This document shows, in pieces, positions 2,824 to 13,002 of a DNA stretch of 20,954 bases. The notes beneath the pieces were generated by a model. It made no database searches and was not told the origin of the DNA. It saw only the letters and a list, made by a program, of their open reading frames with translations. The number at the start of each line of letters is the position of its first letter. Positions within the stretch are counted from its first letter, which is position 1. Source of the DNA: a virus. The position numbers and the translations under genes were made by a program. Location: positions 1 through 20,954 of IMG/VR virus record IMGVR_UViG_3300045968_000340. One strand, 5' to 3'.

Positions 2824-3026
2824 TGCTGGTCGACGGGGCGGCCACCTGGGTGCTGCTGACCGATCGCACCTGGGCGGCGCTGGCCGCGTTCGTCGATCCG
2901 ACCTATCCGCTGTTCGGCCACTACACCACGCGGGTCCGCATCTTCACGTCGCGGCGCCGCGCGCAGGCCTTCCGCCACGACGTCCCGGGGTGGCAGGAGC
3001 TTGGGATTGGCATCGTGCCGCTATGA
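2823..3026 (+). CDS. Small hypothetical phage protein
   Basis: A 67-residue protein reading MLVDGAATWVLLTDRTWAAL, then a Tyr/Phe-rich middle (YPLFGHYTTRVRIFTS) and a basic RRRAQAFRH. It probably has a small beta-rich fold with one helix. No motif of known function is visible. The start ATG overlaps the upstream TGA, and the stop overlaps the ATG of the ATPase gene (ATGA at 3023), so it sits directly ahead of a motor protein. A role as accessory factor for the ATPase is possible but only suggested by position. Confidence 0.62.
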   Translation: MLVDGAATWVLLTDRTWAALAAFVDPTYPLFGHYTTRVRIFTSRRRAQAFRHDVPGWQELGIGIVPL

Positions 3027-4840
3027 GGCTGCCCGATCGTACGGTCCGTCTCGGTTACGCCGTCGGCACCGGCGAGCGCGTCGACATCCCGATCCGGCAC
3101 ATGGTCGTCTGCGGTCAGACGCAGGAGTCGGGCAAGACGACGACCCTCGAGGCGCTGCTCGAGCGCGCCGGGATGCAGGCGCTGACCTTCGTCACCAAGC
3201 ACGGCGAGGGCGCCTTCCGCGGCGCGCGCCAGGTCGAGCCCTACTTCCAGGAGCAGTCTGACAACCGCTGGCGGTTCGTGGCCTCGATGCTCGAGGCGCA
3301 CCTGGGCGAGCGGATGAAATTCGAGCGCAATTGGATCGAGCAGGCTGCACGCGGCACCACCACGCTCGAGCAGGTCCGCGTGAACGCGCGCCGGTTGGCG
3401 GAGACGTCGAAGGGCGGCTTCAACCAGGACCAGTTCCGCATGCTGGCGGTCTACCTCGAGGAACTCGTCCCGCAGCTCGAGGCGGTGACCTGGGCCCGTC
3501 GCGTCCAGCTGCAGCCGCGCATCGTCAGCTGCATGGACCTGGTGGGCATGCCGACGGCGCTGCAGCACCTGGTCATCCGCTCGGCGCTCGAGTGGGTGCA
3601 GACCCACGCGCACGACACGCTCGTCGTCGTGCCCGAGGCCTGGCAGTTCATCCCGCAGGACCGCAGCACGCCGGTGAAGCTCGCCGCGGTGAGCTACATC
3701 CGCCAGGGCGCGGCGCTCCGGAATTACCTCTGGATGGACAGCCAGGACATCGGCGGCATCGACAAGGAGCTGCTCCGGTCGGTGGTGGTCTGGCTCGTCG
3801 GGGTGCAGCGCGAAGCGAACGAGGTCAAGCGCACGCTGGCCAACATCCCGGCGCCGGCGCGCCCGAAAGCCGAGGCCGTCGCGCTGCTCGAGCTCGGGCG
3901 GTTCTTCGCGTGTTGGGGGAAGCACGCGGTCCACACCTACGTGCAGCCGGCCTGGCTGCCGGAGGCGCACGCGGTCCGGATTGCGCAGGGCGGCGAAGCG
4001 ATCGACGACGAGTACGTGCGCGACGCGCGGCCGCCGGTCGCGCGGGAAGGGTGGCGCGATGGCGAAGCAGCAGGAGCAGGACCGCAGGCGGGCGGAGGAC
4101 GCGTTGAAGGCGCAGCGGCAGATCACCGGCGCGCTCACGAAACTACTCGACCGCGTGGTCCGGAATCTGGGGGACGTGCAGTTTCAGTTCTGGCTGGTCA
4201 ACCGGCGGCTGGATCGGCTCGAGGGTTCGACGAGCTCGAGTCGTTCGCCGCGCGCGGCCGCCGCGCGCAAGCGGCCGTCGACCAGGTCATCGCGCAGCAG
4301 CAGGAGGAGGTCATGAACCCGCAGCAGGAGAGGAAGCTCGATCAGGTGCTCGAGGCCAACCGCGAGCTCGCGACGTCGATCAAGGCGCTGGTGAAGTCGC
4401 TCGACGGCCGCGGCGCCGCGGCGCCATCGCCGGCGACAGCGGCCGCGGGCGTGCCACGTGGCAGCGGCGAGTGGTACGACGTTGAGCAGCTCTACGCGGA
4501 GTTCAAGCGGCGCCTGATCGGCGAGGCCTCGGAGGATCCACAGATCCTCGAGGTCCTCGTCCGCCAGCCGGCGATCCGTGTGAAGGTCGAGCGGCACACG
4601 ATCCAGGTCGACAGCGACACACTGCGCGGCCGCATCGCGCTGCTCATCTCCGAGGGCTTTCTCGATTCGAAGATCGAAGCGGGGAAGGTCTTCGGCGCGC
4701 TCGGGAACCGCGGCTTCCGGACCGCGCATCCGAACGTCGTGAAGGAACTCGACGAGCTCACGCGCATGGGATTCCTGACGAAAGCGGGGAAGTGGTACAC
4801 GACCGTCGAGGCGATGAAGCGCCACGTCCAGGAGGCCTGA
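3023..4840 (+). CDS. HerA/FtsK-like P-loop ATPase fused in frame to a winged-helix-like domain
   Basis: The 605-codon frame has two parts. Residues 1-345 form a P-loop ATPase. Walker A is GQTQESGKTT (31-40) and the Walker B-like strand is TLVVVPEAW (199-207, Glu205 as likely catalytic base). A later QDIGGID segment (241-247) resembles the region after Walker B in HerA/FtsK-type DNA pumps. Residues 431-605 look like an independent helical region with winged-helix character (RGRIALLISEGFLDS...ELTRMGFLTKAGKWYTT). The stretch from about 346 to 410 is Gly/Ala/Arg-rich and reads poorly. In the same bases another frame (4059-4316) gives a good coiled coil, and a strong AGGAGG precedes an ATG at 4313. 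The ATPase may therefore end near 4060-4250 in relatives, with this one a read-through fusion. It probably acts in DNA translocation or replication. Confidence 0.72.
   Translation: MRLPDRTVRLGYAVGTGERVDIPIRHMVVCGQTQESGKTTTLEALLERAGMQALTFVTKHGEGAFRGARQVEPYFQEQSDNRWRFVASMLEAHLGERMKFERNWIEQAARGTTTLEQVRVNARRLAETSKGGFNQDQFRMLAVYLEELVPQLEAVTWARRVQLQPRIVSCMDLVGMPTALQHLVIRSALEWVQTHAHDTLVVVPEAWQFIPQDRSTPVKLAAVSYIRQGAALRNYLWMDSQDIGGIDKELLRSVVVWLVGVQREANEVKRTLANIPAPARPKAEAVALLELGRFFACWGKHAVHTYVQPAWLPEAHAVRIAQGGEAIDDEYVRDARPPVAREGWRDGEAAGAGPQAGGGRVEGAAADHRRAHETTRPRGPESGGRAVSVLAGQPAAGSARGFDELESFAARGRRAQAAVDQVIAQQQEEVMNPQQERKLDQVLEANRELATSIKALVKSLDGRGAAAPSPATAAAGVPRGSGEWYDVEQLYAEFKRRLIGEASEDPQILEVLVRQPAIRVKVERHTIQVDSDTLRGRIALLISEGFLDSKIEAGKVFGALGNRGFRTAHPNVVKELDELTRMGFLTKAGKWYTTVEAMKRHVQEA
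4059..4316 (+). CDS. Nested coiled-coil ORF in alternative frame
   Basis: An 85-residue frame inside the ATPase ORF. It begins at an ATG in ATPase codon 346 and ends with a TGA overlapping the ATG at 4313. The first 56 residues (MAKQQEQDRRRAEDALKAQR...LLDRVVRNLGDVQFQFWLVNRRLDRL) are a convincing amphipathic coiled coil. The host frame over the same bases is low-complexity Gly/Ala/Arg. After about base 4225 quality reverses: this frame becomes Ser/Arg-rich while the host frame becomes helix-like (FDELESFAARGRRAQAAVDQ). Either two genes overlap, or a one-base change near 4225 split one gene. No clear ribosome binding site precedes 4059. Confidence 0.45.
   Translation: MAKQQEQDRRRAEDALKAQRQITGALTKLLDRVVRNLGDVQFQFWLVNRRLDRLEGSTSSSRSPRAAAARKRPSTRSSRSSRRRS
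4313..4840 (+). CDS. Alternative independent start for winged-helix-like protein
   Basis: The C-terminal part of the long ATPase frame has its own excellent initiation signal: AGGAGG at 4302-4307, a 5-nt gap, then ATG 4313. That ATG overlaps the TGA of the nested coiled-coil ORF (ATGA), exactly as in the other gene junctions here. From this start the product has 175 residues. It opens with a coiled-coil helix (MNPQQERKLDQVLEANREL), then an Ala/Pro linker, then a domain with EWYDVEQLYAEFKRRL and a winged-helix-like end. It may be made separately, as well as or instead of the fusion. This entry overlaps the 605-codon ORF and should be read as an alternative model. Confidence 0.45.
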   Translation: MNPQQERKLDQVLEANRELATSIKALVKSLDGRGAAAPSPATAAAGVPRGSGEWYDVEQLYAEFKRRLIGEASEDPQILEVLVRQPAIRVKVERHTIQVDSDTLRGRIALLISEGFLDSKIEAGKVFGALGNRGFRTAHPNVVKELDELTRMGFLTKAGKWYTTVEAMKRHVQEA

Positions 4841-6894: not shown

Positions 6895-7026
6895 GTGACC
6901 GCCGCATGCGGCTGCCTGGTGCTCGATGACGAGCGCTGCCGCGAGTGTGGACGATGCGGTAGCCGCGGAACCGAATGGGCCGGCTGCTGCGATTGTCCAG
7001 AAGGAGACGACAATGGCCACCGATAG
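6895..7026 (+). CDS. Small Cys-rich ORF, possibly the 3' part of a frameshifted gene
   Basis: A 43-residue frame from GTG 6895, with eight cysteines: ACGCLVLDDERCRECGRCGSR and then GCCDCPEGD. The cysteine spacing (CGC...CxxCxxC...CCDC) suggests zinc binding. The frame is open back to about 6808, where it could join the upstream zinc-ribbon ORF if one base were missing there, giving a protein of about 128 residues. As an independent gene its start has no good ribosome binding site. Its end overlaps the start of the recombinase remnant by 14 bp. Confidence 0.35.
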   Translation: MTAACGCLVLDDERCRECGRCGSRGTEWAGCCDCPEGDDNGHR

Positions 7027-7280
7027 ACCGCTGCGCGCTGCCCTCTACGCCCGTGTCAGCACCACCGACCAGACGACCGAGAACCAGGTAATGGAGCTCC
7101 GGCGCTACGCCGAGGCCCGCGGCTGGACCGTCGCCGACTACATCGACAACGGCATCAGCGGGACGAAGGAACGCCGGCCGGCACTCGACCGGCTCATGGC
7201 CGATGCCCGCCGCCGACGCTTCGACGTGCTGATCGTCTGGCGGCTCGACCGGCTCGGCCGCGACCTGAGCGTCGAGATCG

Positions 7281-7403
7281 ATGCCGAGATTCTCTATGCG
7301 TGCGCCGGCTATCCGGCGAGTGTTCCTGCTCCAGCGCCCCGATCGGGATGCGTCCGTAGGTCGCCACGCGCACGACGAGACGAAGCACCGGGAGGACGGG
7401 TAG
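7281..7403 (+). CDS. Short ORF between recombinase remnant and repeat (doubtful)
   Basis: A 40-codon frame, ATG 7281 to TAG 7401, ending in a charged His/Asp/Arg-rich stretch (VFLLQRPDRDASVGRHAHDE). The TAG is followed directly by a GTG (7404), which opens the first copy of the 38-bp repeat, like the gene junctions elsewhere. It could be the 3' end of a lost gene that came with the recombination junction. There is no known motif and no good ribosome binding site. Confidence 0.22.
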   Translation: MPRFSMRAPAIRRVFLLQRPDRDASVGRHAHDETKHREDG

Positions 7404-7406
7404 GTG

Positions 7407-7444
7407 CCGCGCCGCGCGGAAGCGCCGCCGATGCACTTCGACGG
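7407..7444 (+). repeat. 38-bp direct repeat, left copy
   Basis: Matches 7929-7966 at 36 of 38 positions, with an exact offset of 522 bp. It encodes PRRAEAPPMHFDG after a GTG at 7404, the same protein start as the intact gene at 7923-8147. It is therefore a duplicated 5' gene end flanking the regulator gene. Seven bases separate it from the regulator's stop codon. Confidence 0.8.
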
Positions 7445-7450
7445 TCTGGA

Positions 7451-7792
7451 TCAGGCGGCGCGCACGGTGAAGTCCACACGGATGGCATCGAAGGGGAACA
7501 CCACGCGGCCGGTTTCGGTCGTGTCCACGAGGCCGGCATCGATCAGGGCATGGACGTCACCGTGAACAGCTTTCACGTCGCGGGCGACCCGGCGGGCGAC
7601 GTCGCGATAAGTGAGTGGCCCTTGACCGGCCATCGCCTTGAGCACTTCCCAGCGCTTGGCGGTGAGCACCTTCCAGAGCAGTTCTGGCGAGGCAAAGCTG
7701 ATCCGGGCTCCGTGTTTCTTGCCGCGGAACGCGTCGAGCGCGCGGCGTGTCACCTCGTCCCGTGACGCGACCTCCAAGGTTACCGTCTTCAT
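7451..7792 (-). CDS. Orphan antitoxin-like winged-helix regulator (HVO_A0114-type)
   Basis: A 113-residue protein starting MKTVTLEVASRDEVTRRALD. A segment ISFASPELLWKVLTAKRWEVLKAM leads into a winged helix (GPLTYRDVARRVARDVKAVHGDVHALIDAGLV) and a short beta end (GRVVFPFDAIRVDF). I recognise the layout as the HVO_A0114-type predicted regulators, usually partnered with a small toxin gene next door. No partner is visible here, so it seems orphaned. ATG 7792 has GGAGG 8 nt upstream. A TTGACA promoter and an inverted repeat lie upstream (7826-7865), fitting autoregulation. The gene runs against all its neighbours and is bracketed by the 38-bp direct repeat, so it is probably an insertion. Confidence 0.78.
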   Translation of the reverse strand: MKTVTLEVASRDEVTRRALDAFRGKKHGARISFASPELLWKVLTAKRWEVLKAMAGQGPLTYRDVARRVARDVKAVHGDVHALIDAGLVDTTETGRVVFPFDAIRVDFTVRAA

Positions 7793-8333: not shown

Positions 8334-8339
8334 CTCAAC

Positions 8340-8374
8340 GAAACGGACCGTCATCGTTAGTGACGGCCCGTTTC
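8340..8374. terminator. Strong hairpin, possible terminator before the HNH-helicase operon
   Basis: GAAACGG-A-CCGTCA (8340-8353) pairs with TGACGG-C-CCGTTTC (8361-8374) around a 7-nt loop, giving a 14-position stem with a single A/C mismatch. The 3' side ends TTTCTC, a weak U-tract. It separates the truncated early genes from the accessory operon, so it probably insulates that operon from read-through. Confidence 0.55.
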
Positions 8375-8487
8375 TCGCCCTCGCTCGGCGCTGCGGTGAC
8401 AGCCCGACTCGAAAGCTGAAACCAAACATAGCGCAGGTCACGTCGGTAAGCGCGCGCGGGCCTTCCTCAAACAAGGAGCGCACACCT

Positions 8488-10611
8488 GTGTCTCGGCACT
8501 TACATCGGTGGTCCCCCGGCGATCGACGCATCCTCTTCACGACGAGTGGTGGCAAGTGCAAGAAGTGCGGCGCTTCCATCACGTTCGATAACTTCCATGC
8601 GGCGCACATGCGCGCAGCCAGCCACGGCGGCCCGCCGATCCCCTCGAACGGCGAGGCATGGTGCGGACCCTGTAACTGGAAGAACCAGGACCGCGATGTT
8701 CGCGACACCCGCGTAACACCCCGGCCATGGCAGCACGAGGCGCTCCCGATCGTTCTCGAAGCCCTCGCAATGCAAAAGGTGGCGACGGTGATGGCCGCGC
8801 CCGGCGCTGGAAAGACGATATTTGCGGGGCTTGTGTTCGCTGCGGGCCAACACGCTGGACGCTGGAATCGTTTGCTGGTTTTGGTACCACGATTACCGCT
8901 GGTGGAACAGTGGGCCGACGACTTACTGGAGAGCTATCACATCGAACTCGACACATACACCGGCGCGCGGACGACTGGGCTCGAACTGGAGAAGACCGAT
9001 GGTATCTGCATGACGTACCAGGCCCTGCTGATGCCGCGCGTCCAGGAGCTCCATCGACGCGCCATGGCGAGGACGCCGACCCTGGTCGTCCTCGACGAGG
9101 TGCATCACCTCGGCGAGCCCGTACAGAAAGACGAGGATCCACGAGCCTGGGCGAGTGCGGTGCGAGAGGTAGTCGGTGACCTCGAAGTTGGCCTCAATGT
9201 GGCTGGCGTAATGAACCTCTCCGGAACTCTGTTCCGTACGTCCCCACGGGAACGGATCTCCACTGTCCAGTACACAGATGTCGTCGGCGAGCAGGACGCC
9301 CCCCGCATCGAAGCAATCGCGAATTACGCCATCCACCCGGAGCGCCTCGTACGTGAGGGCGTCCTCCGGCCTCCTGATTTGTACCGTCTCGACGCAAAAG
9401 TCGAGCTCGTGAACTTGGCCAGTGCAGAAATGACGTCTGCCCGAGTCGCAGATCTTACAGACGACGCGGAGAAACGGGTGACGTTGCGCCGCCTTCCGCA
9501 GACGCCCGAATGGATCTCGCACATGGTCGCCGTGACGTTGCGCCAACTCAGAAAGCGTCACGAAGACAGCAAGGGTGCTCCGGTGAAGGCGCTTATCGTC
9601 GCCTCGAGGCAGACCATGGCGGCCGCATTCGCCGAAGAAGTCAACAGGCAGATGAAGGCCGCCGGCCTGCAGCCTTTGGCGGAATGCGTGGTGTCGGCTG
9701 ACGGTGCCGATGCCTATCGCAGGTTGGATGCGTTCAGAAAGAAGGATCGGGTAGGAGTGCTGTGCACCGTAGGGATGGCGGGCGAAGGTTACAACTGCCC
9801 GGATATCGCCGTTATCACGTACGCCACGAACATTCAGACGGTTCAGTACGTGCGTCAGGTCGTGGCGCGAGGCCAACGCGTGACCGAACGGGAAAAGAGG
9901 AACGGCCAGGTGCTGACCACGGCCATCATCTTGCCGGACGTGCAGGGGCTCGTCGATCTGTTTACGGACATCCTTGCCCCAATGGTGCACAACATCGCCG
10001 CGCCGACCGATGGCGCCAGTAATCCAACGGTTGGGCCAGACAAGACGCCATCCGGGTCGCCAGCGGCGCCGGCGTGGAGCGACACCGATCTGGTCGGTGT
10101 CCACGATCCGGCGGTCAACATCGTGTCTACGGTGGGCACCGGTGGAACATTCGACGTGAATCCGATCTATGAAGAGGTCGTAGGACCGGCTTTACGCGAA
10201 GTGGATCTACCTCAGACGTGGTGGCCGCGCGTTACACATGCGATTCAGGCACTCGATGTGAGAAGACCGTTTCAACCGGCCATCCTTGGTGCGACTCCAA
10301 CGGCGGTGATCGAGGGTGGCGATCCAGTGCGCCGGCCCTTGACTCAGCGCGAACATCACCAGGTTTATCGCGACCGATTCAAGCAGGCCCACAAGTGGTG
10401 GGCGGCGATCCCGGCGCGTAGCGGGGGCCAAGCCATCGACCATTTCATCGCGGAGATTAAGGAGAAAGCCGGCATCCGGGACATCGATCGTGCGACACCA
10501 GAGCAACTGAAACGAGCTTGCTCGATCGCGCTGTCTCGCATTCGAGAGTGGTGCGATCGAATGGGAACCCGGTTGCCGAGGTGGGCTCGCGCCGTAGAGG
10601 ACGAGTCATGA
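8488..10611 (+). CDS. HNH nuclease-SF2 helicase fusion protein
   Basis: A 707-residue protein starting at GTG 8488, with AAGGAG at 8474-8479. Residues 20-70 form a zinc-type HNH nuclease: Cys24/Cys27, AAHMRAASHGG (His40, His46), Asn54, Cys59/Cys62. A superfamily 2 helicase core follows: WQHEAL before the P-loop, APGAGKT (104-110), DEVHH (203-207), SGT (245-247), VGMAGEGYNCPD (428-439), and RQVVARGQR (456-464), a motif VI in which the usual Gly is Ala. Residues 500-707 match nothing I know. The layout suits a DNA-translocating nuclease that attacks invading DNA, or a replication/repair enzyme. It overlaps the next gene by ATGA. GC content is visibly lower than in the head genes, suggesting transfer. 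Biochemical role is inference. Confidence 0.8.
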   Translation: MSRHLHRWSPGDRRILFTTSGGKCKKCGASITFDNFHAAHMRAASHGGPPIPSNGEAWCGPCNWKNQDRDVRDTRVTPRPWQHEALPIVLEALAMQKVATVMAAPGAGKTIFAGLVFAAGQHAGRWNRLLVLVPRLPLVEQWADDLLESYHIELDTYTGARTTGLELEKTDGICMTYQALLMPRVQELHRRAMARTPTLVVLDEVHHLGEPVQKDEDPRAWASAVREVVGDLEVGLNVAGVMNLSGTLFRTSPRERISTVQYTDVVGEQDAPRIEAIANYAIHPERLVREGVLRPPDLYRLDAKVELVNLASAEMTSARVADLTDDAEKRVTLRRLPQTPEWISHMVAVTLRQLRKRHEDSKGAPVKALIVASRQTMAAAFAEEVNRQMKAAGLQPLAECVVSADGADAYRRLDAFRKKDRVGVLCTVGMAGEGYNCPDIAVITYATNIQTVQYVRQVVARGQRVTEREKRNGQVLTTAIILPDVQGLVDLFTDILAPMVHNIAAPTDGASNPTVGPDKTPSGSPAAPAWSDTDLVGVHDPAVNIVSTVGTGGTFDVNPIYEEVVGPALREVDLPQTWWPRVTHAIQALDVRRPFQPAILGATPTAVIEGGDPVRRPLTQREHHQVYRDRFKQAHKWWAAIPARSGGQAIDHFIAEIKEKAGIRDIDRATPEQLKRACSIALSRIREWCDRMGTRLPRWARAVEDES

Positions 10612-11342
10612 ACTCGAGAGAGCTCAAGACCCACGGCGCTCGAGTCGATCAATTTGCGCGCGCCGTCCCCAACATGGGTCGACTGGGCGATCTCACACGC
10701 GCCGCAGTAGAGATGCTGCGGTCGAGCGATTGGCGCGATTACAGCGACGCGACTGGCTCTTACCACTTCCTCCCCGGCGAGTTCGACTACTTCCTCGCGC
10801 TGCAGACGGTAGATGCGCGCGACGTCGCGAGGTTCTTGTTGTCGCCGGAAGAGCGGATGGAGCTCGCCCAGGCGATGGATCACACCCGGACCGGTGAAGA
10901 GAGTTACCGGCGAACGCTTGAGCAGGTTGCGACGGAGCATCCGCATGCGGCGCGGAGCCTCACAGATTACTGGGGCCGATTCGGATGGGGTGACGGAAAG
11001 CATCCGGTCAGCACGCGTACGCTCATTCGCGCCCGCACCGGAGTGACTCCAGAAGAGCACGCTCGGCAAACCCGCATGAAGCGGCTGCGACAGCTCGCGA
11101 ACGGCTGGCGGGATCGCGTCGCCCGCGTCGTCGAGGCCGCGGAGGGCTTTTCCCGGGAGGAGCTCCTCGCCGCGATCGAGGCGCTTCAGGAGCTCGCGCG
11201 TGAGGCACCTAAACTCGCGGGCGCTGAAACGTGGCGACGCGATGCCGAAGAGCTCGATTGGTCTGATGTGGAATGCGCTAAACGCTGGAAGGTGTCTCGG
11301 TCGACGGCAAGCTCGCGCCTGGCCCGCCTCCGCGCCGAATGA
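10608..11342 (+). CDS. Partner of the HNH-helicase, with C-terminal helix-turn-helix
   Basis: A 244-residue protein whose ATG overlaps the helicase stop (ATGA), so the two are almost certainly made together. I do not recognise the first 130 residues (...YHFLPGEFDYFLALQTVDARDVARFLL...). Residues 155-215 are a long charged helical region (FSREELLAAIEALQELARE). The last ~25 residues, DVECAKRWKVSRSTASSRLARL, have the form of a helix-turn-helix. It may recruit the helicase to DNA, or regulate the operon by binding the 27-bp palindrome that starts 10 bp after its stop. Coupling and proximity support a functional pair; the mechanism is unknown. Confidence 0.75.
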   Translation: MNSRELKTHGARVDQFARAVPNMGRLGDLTRAAVEMLRSSDWRDYSDATGSYHFLPGEFDYFLALQTVDARDVARFLLSPEERMELAQAMDHTRTGEESYRRTLEQVATEHPHAARSLTDYWGRFGWGDGKHPVSTRTLIRARTGVTPEEHARQTRMKRLRQLANGWRDRVARVVEAAEGFSREELLAAIEALQELAREAPKLAGAETWRRDAEELDWSDVECAKRWKVSRSTASSRLARLRAE

Positions 11343-11351
11343 TTTTAGAGA

Positions 11352-11378
11352 TGCTGCATTATCGTCGATAATGCAGCA
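11352..11378. promoter_or_regulatory. 27-bp near-perfect palindrome
   Basis: The arm TGCTGCATTATCG (11352-11364), a single central T (11365), then its exact complement CGATAATGCAGCA (11366-11378). The stem is AT-balanced and no T-run follows, so an operator or protein-binding site is more likely than an intrinsic terminator. It lies between the HNH-helicase pair and a small ORF starting at 11395. Confidence 0.75.
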
Positions 11379-11589: not shown

Positions 11590-11873
11590 TCCAGCGGTTC
11601 TATCCACCAGGTGCGCAACGTCACTTCTCCTCCGCCACGCAACGCGACGAGATAGGACGCGCGCACGTCTCCGGTGCGCACCACCTGTGCGGTGCGCCCC
11701 CGGTAGGCGAGGGGCGCCGTCTCCTTGACGCGGACGCGCTCGCCAGGCTGGTACTTGGGCTTCCGGCCCGCGAGCTGCGCATTGCGCTTCAGTGCGGCCA
11801 GCTTGCGTTCGGTCATCACCGAACCGCCGAGGCGCCCGAGTGCGACGGCGTGCGGGTTCTTCCGCTTCGCCAT
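11586..11873 (-). CDS. Third gene of the toxin-antitoxin operon (SH3-like small protein)
   Basis: A 95-residue basic protein, starting MAKRKNPHAVALGRLGGSVM, with KLAALKRNAQLAGRKPKY. That is followed by a beta-rich part, YQPGERVRVKETAPLAYRGRTAQVV, ending in LRTWWIEPLD. The GERVRV...A.YRGRTAxVV layout looks like an SH3/KOW-type small barrel. Similar proteins occur as stand-alone small genes in many bacteria; no function is known to me. ATG 11873 overlaps the TGA of the zinc-finger antitoxin gene by one base, so it is the last gene of a three-gene minus-strand operon. TTG 11876 is an alternative start. Confidence 0.68.
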   Translation of the reverse strand: MAKRKNPHAVALGRLGGSVMTERKLAALKRNAQLAGRKPKYQPGERVRVKETAPLAYRGRTAQVVRTGDVRASYLVALRGGGEVTLRTWWIEPLD

Positions 11874-12115
11874 CAAGCGACCTTTGCGGCGAAGTCGCGC
11901 ACGGCGTAGGTCACACCAGACGCCAGCACGGACTCGTGCAGGCGCTCGAGCTGGCGCACGATCTCGCCATCGAAATACGCATGGCCGCAGTTGTCGCAGA
12001 TGTCCGCGGGGATGTGCTGCACGATGACGGCGGTGGCCTCGCGCGTCAAGGTCAGCGAGGCCTCGCCGGCGGCCAGCTCGCCAGTCTTGCAGAACACGCA
12101 GCGGGAGGCGCTCAT
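11873..12115 (-). CDS. YgiT-type zinc-finger antitoxin (MqsA-like N-terminus)
   Basis: An 80-residue protein with MSASRCVFCKTGEL (Cys6, Cys9), then a strand-rich middle and ADICDNCGHAYFDGEIVRQLERL, holding the second CxxC. This is the zinc-binding domain known as the YgiT-type finger, found in MqsA and in short antitoxins that lack MqsA's DNA-binding half. It is usually paired with a DUF4258 or MqsR-like toxin gene immediately upstream, as here (ATGA-like overlap, 12112-12115). Expected role: bind and neutralise the toxin. With no C-terminal HTH, it probably cannot repress the operon by itself. Assignment rests on the Cys pattern and the neighbour. Confidence 0.82.
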   Translation of the reverse strand: MSASRCVFCKTGELAAGEASLTLTREATAVIVQHIPADICDNCGHAYFDGEIVRQLERLHESVLASGVTYAVRDFAAKVA

Positions 12116-12396
12116 CGCCGCACCCGCGTGCGGAAGTCCGGGCTCCAACGCGCCGGATCGGGTTGATAGACGGTGATCACGATGTGCTCCTGTTCCGCGG
12201 CATTGACCGCGTAGACGACGTGCAGTGGACGCTGGGCGACCCACGCGAGCACCAATCGGCTGGGGTGCGGGCGATCGTCGAGATAGTCGCGCAGGGTTTC
12301 GCCAGCCGCCATAACAGACTCCACTTCGTCGGCGGTGATCCGGCGCTCACGCATCCGCAGAAGAGCTTCGTCGCTGTATCGGATGCGCACTGACAT
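12112..12396 (-). CDS. DUF4258 toxin (MqsR/RelE-like fold)
   Basis: A 94-residue protein: MSVRIRYSDEALLRMRERRI, TADEVESVMAAGETLRDY, PHPSRLVLAWV, LHVVYAVNAAEQEHIVITVYQPDPARW. That is the DUF4258 pattern (helix with 'H/R...RM.eRgIt.deV...l', central strands, and final 'VxTVY.Pd...W'). Such proteins are predicted mRNA interferases and pair with YgiT-type finger proteins. It is the first gene of the operon. The promoter (-35 TTGACA, -10 TAGTAT) lies so close that transcription should start near codon 3, a GTG at 12390. The functional start may therefore be that GTG on a leaderless message rather than ATG 12396. Confidence 0.82.
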   Translation of the reverse strand: MSVRIRYSDEALLRMRERRITADEVESVMAAGETLRDYLDDRPHPSRLVLAWVAQRPLHVVYAVNAAEQEHIVITVYQPDPARWSPDFRTRVRR

Positions 12397-12486: not shown

Positions 12487-13002
12487 GTGGAACTTCCGCT
12501 CGACGATCCGGAGGAGACGTGGGCGCCGATCGCCGAGGCGCCGTCCTACCAGGTGTCGACACGAGGACGCGTCCGCCGCCTGGTCGACGGCGTCGAGCTC
12601 GACGTCGCCACCTGGCAGAACAAAGGGCGCTACGTCTGCGTCAATCTGGATCTGCCGGACGGCCATCCGGTCTTGCGCTATGTCCACCGCCTGGTCGCCA
12701 CCGCGTTCCGGTCGAATCGACCCAGTGACGCCACGCAGGTCAACCACGAGAACGGGCTGAAGCCGGACAATCGCTTAGAGAATCTCGCGTGGACGACCCC
12801 TCGAGGGAACGTCCAGCACGCCCGGGACACTGGGTTAATCCACCCACGGCCGCCTCAGGACACGTGCGCGCATGGCCATCCCCGCGACCAGGCCTACCAG
12901 CTGCACGGCCGCCCAGGACGGCGCTGCGCGCGCTGCCGCCGGGTCCGCGCGCGCGAACGGCGCTATGGACAACCCGCGCTCCTGGCGCTACTCAACGGGT
13001 GA
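12487..13002 (+). CDS. NUMOD4/HNH homing-type endonuclease
   Basis: A 171-residue protein. Residues 9-31, EETWAPIAEAPSYQVSTRGRVR, are a NUMOD4 motif. Residues 62-115 are an HNH_3-type nuclease: YVHRLVATAF (His67), VNHENGLKPDNRLENLAWTT (Asn86-His87, Asn95, Asn99) and GNVQHARDTG. The C-terminus adds a Cys/His cluster (DTCAHGH...RRCARC), often seen after such nucleases. These are mobile endonucleases that cut phage or host DNA, typically free-standing between phage genes. GTG 12487 is the start. No intron or split gene is evident around it. It is separated from the toxin-antitoxin operon by a 90-bp divergent promoter region and is convergent with the regulator at 13011. Confidence 0.85.
   Translation: MELPLDDPEETWAPIAEAPSYQVSTRGRVRRLVDGVELDVATWQNKGRYVCVNLDLPDGHPVLRYVHRLVATAFRSNRPSDATQVNHENGLKPDNRLENLAWTTPRGNVQHARDTGLIHPRPPQDTCAHGHPRDQAYQLHGRPGRRCARCRRVRARERRYGQPALLALLNG

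What the first reader, a model, noticed from the sequence alone, without database searches (positions are those of the whole stretch)
8488..11342. Two-gene HNH-helicase operon, candidate undescribed defence or exclusion system
An HNH nuclease domain lies N-terminal to an SF2 helicase in one 707-aa chain. It is coupled by ATGA to an unrecognised 244-aa protein with a C-terminal helix-turn-helix. The pair sits behind a terminator-like hairpin, in lower-GC DNA, next to toxin-antitoxin, homing endonuclease and orphan regulators. Motif VI reads RQVVARGQR instead of RQxxGRxxR. A nuclease-helicase plus a specificity-like partner, carried by a phage, is the usual shape of an anti-phage or superinfection-exclusion module.
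Basis: partly seen in the sequence, partly recalled or inferred. Interest (0 to 1): 0.85.

Follow-up and report, generated by a model that had tools for sequence, protein, structure and literature searches.

The report
Mobile two-gene HNH-helicase module
The window carries a pair of overlapping phage genes, a helicase fused to a nuclease-type domain and a variable partner protein, that travel together through unrelated phages, plasmids and bacterial defence islands; no named family or described system was found for the pair, and it may be an uncharacterised way of fighting rival phages.

Summary
In detail: 707-aa HNH-SF2 helicase (8488-10611) plus 244-aa partner (10608-11342), ATGA-coupled, in lower-GC DNA. 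The pair is real: 46 non-redundant HNH-helicase loci have a coupled 185-253-aa downstream gene, 31 with exactly a 4-nt overlap; helicase and partner distances correlate (r=0.91). In nine further actinobacterial genomes found through the partner profile alone, the HNH-helicase was always adjacent. No Pfam, PHROGs, NCBIfam or PADLOC family and no solved fold covers the partner; the helicase core resembles RadD and HsdR. Close relatives (57-68% identity) sit in phages that share few or no other genes, so the pair moves as a unit. It occurs in phage recombination modules, behind lysis cassettes, by integrases, on plasmids, and next to Hma-like and PDC-M02 defence genes. The partner keeps its N-terminus but varies at its C-terminus, like a specificity subunit. 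Best reading: uncharacterised anti-invader module (~0.5); chief rival: phage recombination helicase (~0.3). No activity is shown.

The parts
8339..8436 (+). Conserved noncoding leader: strong hairpin (8340-8374) followed by a conserved tail with two mutually exclusive stems; begins about 150 nt before the helicase start
   Evidence: 73-88% identical in L003, L013, L096 although 4-fold synonymous sites of the genes behind it are 32-49% identical; found in all viral contigs only in front of this helicase; 2 compensatory pairs in 4 sequences; no Rfam match; absent in L095
8488..10611 (+). HNH-SF2 helicase, 707 aa: HNH residues about 10-72 (Ala39 where relatives have Asp), RadD/HsdR-like helicase about 76-500, C-terminal domain about 531-707
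10608..11342 (+). Partner protein, 244 aa, all-helical model; conserved N-terminal domain (1-75), variable C-terminal part ending in a helix-turn-helix (206-243)
   Evidence: no family in Pfam, PHROGs, NCBIfam, PADLOC, no fold match
11352..11378 (.). Perfect 13-bp-arm inverted repeat TGCTGCATTATCG/CGATAATGCAGCA just after the pair; terminator or operator, unproven; not in related loci

Best explanation
The pair is a self-contained, horizontally moving cargo module that most likely protects the cell (or the prophage living in it) from other invading DNA. Proposed mechanism: the partner docks on the helicase through its conserved N-terminal domain and supplies target recognition through its variable C-terminal DNA-binding part; the RadD/HsdR-like SF2 motor then translocates on or remodels the invader's DNA, and the N-terminal HNH domain cuts it. 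In the window's clade the HNH motif has lost its metal-binding Asp, so there the effect would have to come from the motor itself (blocking or unwinding replication intermediates), or from an HNH that uses another ligand. Shown by computation: the pairing, translational coupling, co-divergence, movement as a unit, partner variability, leader conservation, defence-gene neighbours. Inferred: complex formation, DNA recognition, cleavage, defence.
For: Pair conserved and coupled: 46 non-redundant loci, 31 with exactly ATGA/GTGA overlap; mirror-tree r 0.91, Mantel p 0.0005; partner profile alone leads to the HNH-helicase in 9 of 9 further genomes read, and it is sporadic (8 of 393 Streptomyces, 2 of 249 in another actinobacterial family with full-length matches). 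Moves as a unit: the 38 kb held of phage G001 share only the pair (64/68% identity) with the window. Defence neighbours: L017 and L224 beside PDC-M02A/B (in L224 apparently one operon), L221 0.8 kb from an HmaA/B/C-like gene set, L016 between a DNA methylase-like gene and a weak PD-(D/E)XK hit. Prophage cargo positions: after lysis genes (L104, L106, L118, L146, L099, L218) or beside an integrase (L095, L096, L003, L007, L014). Specificity-like variation: four relatives in one MAG are 84-100% identical in leader and HNH start and 74-95% in the gene after the pair, but one partner's C-terminus is only 4-17% identical; in the window clade partner N-terminus 71-83%, HTH 25-50%. Fold neighbours include HsdR, LlaBIII, SauUSI, ZorD.
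Against: About a third of the phage loci read lie in recombination/replication modules. Best fold match is RadD, a repair helicase. HNH Asp is lost in the window clade. Defence-gene proximity was judged from a handful of loci without a matched control. PADLOC contains no close model (best 37.7 bits). No experiment.
Confidence: 0.5

Rival explanations
1. Phage DNA-metabolism module: the helicase is a RadD/UvsW-type recombination or branch-migration helicase with an HNH resolvase-like domain, and the partner is its DNA-loading or annealing co-factor, helping the phage's own recombination-dependent replication.
For: L110: exonuclease-RecT directly in front with a 4-nt overlap; L151: exonuclease-Erf; L216: Sak4/RecT-like gene in front, replication initiator behind; L219: replication initiator and DnaB; L111/L114/L121: SSB in front, replication initiator overlapping behind, RecT and exonuclease further on; L109, L102, L139 similar. 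RadD is the best fold match. PIS 136 has it in its early region.
Against: PIS 136, L139 and L219 carry their own DnaB, so it is not the replicative helicase. The pair is also on plasmids and in chromosomal loci beside Hma-like and PDC-M02 genes. Close relatives of the window pair sit in otherwise unrelated phages, by integrases or on the strand opposite to the structural genes. C-terminal hypervariability of the partner is unexpected for a replication factor.
Confidence: 0.3
2. Counter-defence or host-takeover pair: an early phage/plasmid module that disarms host restriction or repair (as anti-restriction proteins do) rather than attacking other phages.
For: Found in phages and plasmids, often in early regions; L003 has an ArdC-like gene shortly after the pair (recognised by eye only).
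Against: Chromosomal copies beside defence genes and the catalytic helicase-nuclease make-up fit attack on DNA better; no specific evidence.
Confidence: 0.12
3. Homing or otherwise selfish element: the HNH domain cuts empty sites and the pair spreads by copying itself.
For: The pair moves between unrelated phages with a fixed left boundary at the leader.
Against: The HNH motif has lost its Asp in the very clade where movement was seen; no conserved right end; a helicase plus partner is not the make-up of homing endonucleases.
Confidence: 0.05

Closest known systems
Hna (helicase-nuclease abortive infection; PMC13381803)
   Same: SF2 helicase and nuclease domain in one chain; proposed DNA-directed anti-phage action
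   Different: Hna is a single gene with a C-terminal PD-(D/E)XK nuclease; here the nuclease-type domain is an N-terminal HNH, there is a second coupled gene, and no anti-phage test exists
Hachiman, Gabija, Nhi, AbpAB (helicase-nuclease defence systems; from PMC13381803 and PMC10732053)
   Same: helicase and nuclease functions cooperate
   Different: none of their partner proteins matches; PADLOC models do not match the partner at all and match only the helicase core weakly
Type I restriction HsdR with HsdS specificity subunit
   Same: RadD/HsdR-like SF2 motor plus a separate protein whose recognition-like part is hypervariable
   Different: no methyltransferase in the module, HNH instead of PD-(D/E)XK, partner unrelated to HsdS
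RadD / UvsW-type repair and recombination helicases
   Same: best fold match of the helicase core, E 1.7e-13; recombination-module position in some phages
   Different: N-terminal HNH and coupled partner; NCBIfam RadD model only 21 bits against a cut-off of 720
Chromosomal actinobacterial DEAD/DEAH helicase without HNH (for example next to DUF3039/DUF3099, L010)
   Same: nearest cellular sequence relatives of the helicase core
   Different: no HNH domain and no consistent coupled partner in 87 loci

Membership tests
Hna | single effector: SF2 helicase with C-terminal PD-(D/E)XK nuclease | tested here: not met
   HNH is N-terminal, no nuclease domain found at the C-terminus, second gene conserved
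Type I restriction-modification | HsdR, HsdM and HsdS genes together | tested here: not met
   no methyltransferase or HsdS in the pair; type I/EcoAI models only 22-32 bits, core only
Zorya (type II) | ZorAB plus ZorE HNH nuclease | tested here: not met
   no ZorAB or ZorE model hit for either protein
Hachiman / Gabija / AbpAB | their named partner proteins next to the helicase | tested here: not met
   partner has no PADLOC hit at E up to 1
RadD repair helicase | RadD-type SF2 fold | tested here: met
   Foldseek 7r7j E 1.7e-13
RadD repair helicase | score above the curated NCBIfam RadD cut-off | tested here: not met
   21.3 bits against 720
HNH nuclease (active) | two CxxC, general-base His, Asn, and an acidic/His metal ligand just before the His | tested here: inconclusive
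   CxxC pairs, H40, N54, N63 present; the ligand position is Ala39 in the whole window clade, Asp in nearly all others
OMEGA (IscB-type) RNA-guided nuclease | RuvC plus HNH with upstream guide RNA | tested here: not met
   no RuvC domain; IscB model hits only the HNH of one relative at E 0.0045; L095 lacks the leader
anti-phage defence system | measured protection against phage or plasmid | not testable with these tools

The most novel reading that the evidence does not exclude
An uncharacterised class of mobile DNA-defence module in which an HNH-SF2 motor is aimed by a rapidly diversifying partner protein, widespread in phages, plasmids and defence islands; in the window's clade it has turned into a motor with a catalytically dead HNH and is preceded by a strongly conserved structured leader that takes part in its control or action.
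Probability: 0.4. Interest if true: 0.78.

Novelty: new variant of a known kind. Interest (0 to 1): 0.62.

Why it matters
If true, it adds a widespread helicase-nuclease system with an undescribed partner family to phage biology. The natural set of partner alleles (conserved N-terminus, swapped C-terminus) gives a direct way to ask what such systems recognise, and the Ala/Asp split in the HNH motif gives a ready-made test of whether the motor alone suffices. If it is instead a recombination module, it names the function of a gene pair found in many actinobacterial and other phages that is now annotated only as helicase plus hypothetical protein.

Tried and rejected
Family-wide upstream hairpin: not enriched. 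34 loci gave mean z -1.07 against -0.83 for 36 control upstream regions, and several look like terminators of the gene in front, so only the window-clade leader is claimed. Guide-RNA idea (OMEGA-like): rejected as unsupported, since L095 has the pair without the leader, directly behind an integrase (not used). Rfam: nothing. Partner by fold: no match in PDB or BFVD. Single-protein scans of viral contigs found nothing or one locus until alignments were used. Partner in the annotated phage and plasmid collections by tblastn: none. Direct homology of the window-clade partner (A5) with the actinobacterial partner family (A6): only N-terminal 93 columns, P 1.4e-4, probability 52%, so likely but not proven; A6 with A7 is clear, E 1e-31. 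Divergent 200-aa genes in front of the Streptomyces plasmid pairs gave no defence hit. Literature searches found no description of an HNH-SF2 plus partner pair in the open-access library, which is not exhaustive.

Full report
What is there. The window is a 20,954-base virus record with a replication-initiator-like gene, an ATPase, small early genes, the pair, a toxin-antitoxin-like pair, an HNH homing-type gene and then terminase, portal and protease genes. The pair is as described: a 707-aa protein with an N-terminal HNH and an SF2 helicase (8488-10611) and a 244-aa protein (10608-11342) coupled by ATGA, in DNA of 61-62% GC.

The pair is not a chance neighbourhood. Relatives of the helicase with the HNH were found in IMG/VR phages, Streptomyces plasmids, a sequenced phage (Saccharomonospora phage PIS 136) and genomes. 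In the annotated records the HNH part is often cut off by a start codon placed too late; it is there in the DNA. In 46 non-redundant loci with the HNH, a gene of 185-253 aa begins within -28 to +7 nt of the helicase stop, 31 times with exactly a 4-nt overlap; the helicase and partner distances correlate with r 0.91. Because the downstream gene was sought near the stop, this count alone is biased; two checks are independent. First, 87 related helicases without HNH, mostly chromosomal, show no consistent downstream gene. Second, the partner profile was searched on its own in 393 Streptomyces genomes and 249 genomes of another actinobacterial family; all nine further full or strong matches that were read lie next to an HNH-helicase. 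Exceptions exist (L127 and L022 lack such a partner).

The partner. It has no family in Pfam, PHROGs, NCBIfam or PADLOC and no fold match. The model is all-helical and ends in a helix-turn-helix. Partners of the actinobacterial and other groups are homologous (hhalign E 1e-31); the window-clade partner aligns with them only over its first 93 residues at moderate confidence. In four relatives from one Microbacteriaceae MAG the leader and HNH start are 84-100% identical and the next gene 74-95%, but the partner of one copy has only 4-17% identity at its C-terminus. In the window clade the partner N-terminus is 71-83% identical and the HTH 25-50%. A conserved docking part with a swapped recognition part is the simplest reading; it is an inference.

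The helicase. The model (pLDDT 85, pTM 0.83) matches RadD best, then HsdR, LlaBIII, SauUSI and ZorD. Motif VI differs by one Gly-to-Ala change, shared by the clade. In the HNH motif, the residue before the general-base His is Asp in nearly all relatives but Ala in every member of the window clade: window, L003, L013, L095, L096, L097, L014, the L015 group, L016 and L099. From what is known of HNH nucleases (own knowledge), that residue binds the metal, so this clade may not cut DNA with its HNH.

It moves as a unit. Phage G001 carries a pair 64/68% identical to the window's, yet the 38 kb held share nothing else with the window at protein level; G003 and G004 share only the pair and, in G003, a distant terminase; G002 has a related terminase and several other genes, but its pair lies directly behind an integrase. 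In G003 and G004 the pair runs opposite to the structural genes.

A conserved leader. 98 nt (8339-8436) in front of the window's pair recur in L003, L013 and L096. Identity is 73-88%, while 4-fold synonymous sites in the genes behind are 32-49% identical; flanking noncoding DNA does not align. Scanning all viral contigs finds its core only in front of this helicase. It can form a strong hairpin with two compensatory pairs, then either of two mutually exclusive stems; four sequences are too few to prove an RNA structure. No Rfam family matches. L095 lacks it, so it is not obligatory. Strong hairpins are not enriched across the wider family.

Where it lives. (a) Recombination or replication modules: L110, L151, L216, L219, L111/L114/L121, L109, L102, L139. 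(b) Behind lysis genes: L104, L106, L118, L146, L099, L218. (c) By integrases: L095, L096, L003, L007, L014. (d) Plasmids of Streptomyces. (e) Chromosomal loci beside defence genes: PDC-M02A/B in L017 (near tRNA-Pro) and L224, HmaA/B/C-like genes in L221, a methylase-like gene and a weak nuclease hit in L016. Context (e) and the cargo positions favour defence; context (a) favours recombination. Neither is decisive, and context (e) has no matched control.

Verdict. A real, mobile, conserved two-gene module with an undescribed partner family. Defence against other invading DNA is the best single reading at about 0.5, a phage recombination module at about 0.3. The nuclease step is doubtful for the window's own copy. 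Known helicase-nuclease defence systems (Hna, PMC13381803; AbpAB, PMC10732053) work in a comparable way but are not its family.

Noticed in passing
window 11352-11378: Near-perfect 27-bp palindrome (13-bp arms, 1-nt centre) between the partner gene and a small 65-aa gene; not in any related locus held.
   Followed up: partly
window 11873-12396 (-): MqsA-like antitoxin (PF15731, E 2e-5) and DUF4258 protein (PF14076, E 8e-19), a likely toxin-antitoxin pair.
   Followed up: no
window 12487-13002 (+): NUMOD4 plus HNH_3 homing-type endonuclease in front of the terminase genes.
   Followed up: no
window 6926-7765 (+): Serine resolvase N-terminal domain (residues 38-115) followed by unrelated sequence: a broken or truncated resolvase.
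   Followed up: no
window 2990-4840 (+): 616-aa P-loop ATPase of uncertain kind (weak terminase-type PHROG hit, E 6e-5; no Pfam hit).
   Followed up: no
L096 5989-8120: The helicase relative is split into two overlapping frames (421 and 311 aa); frameshift or sequencing error.
   Followed up: no
L015, L193, L198, L200 (one Microbacteriaceae MAG): Four copies of the module on short contigs with shared ends, near-identical leaders and an own strong hairpin, but different partners; a natural allele series.
   Followed up: partly
L224 6323-10886 (-): HNH-helicase, partner, PDC-M02A and PDC-M02B on one strand, apparently one four-gene operon; L017 has the same four genes in convergent order.
   Followed up: partly
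L008 and L011 (plasmids of Pseudomonas and E. coli): HNH-less helicase relatives preceded by an overlapping 190-225-aa gene; in L011 a CBASS operon lies nearby.
   Followed up: no
L002, L005, L007: Deposited annotations start the helicase too late and miss the HNH domain.
   Followed up: yes
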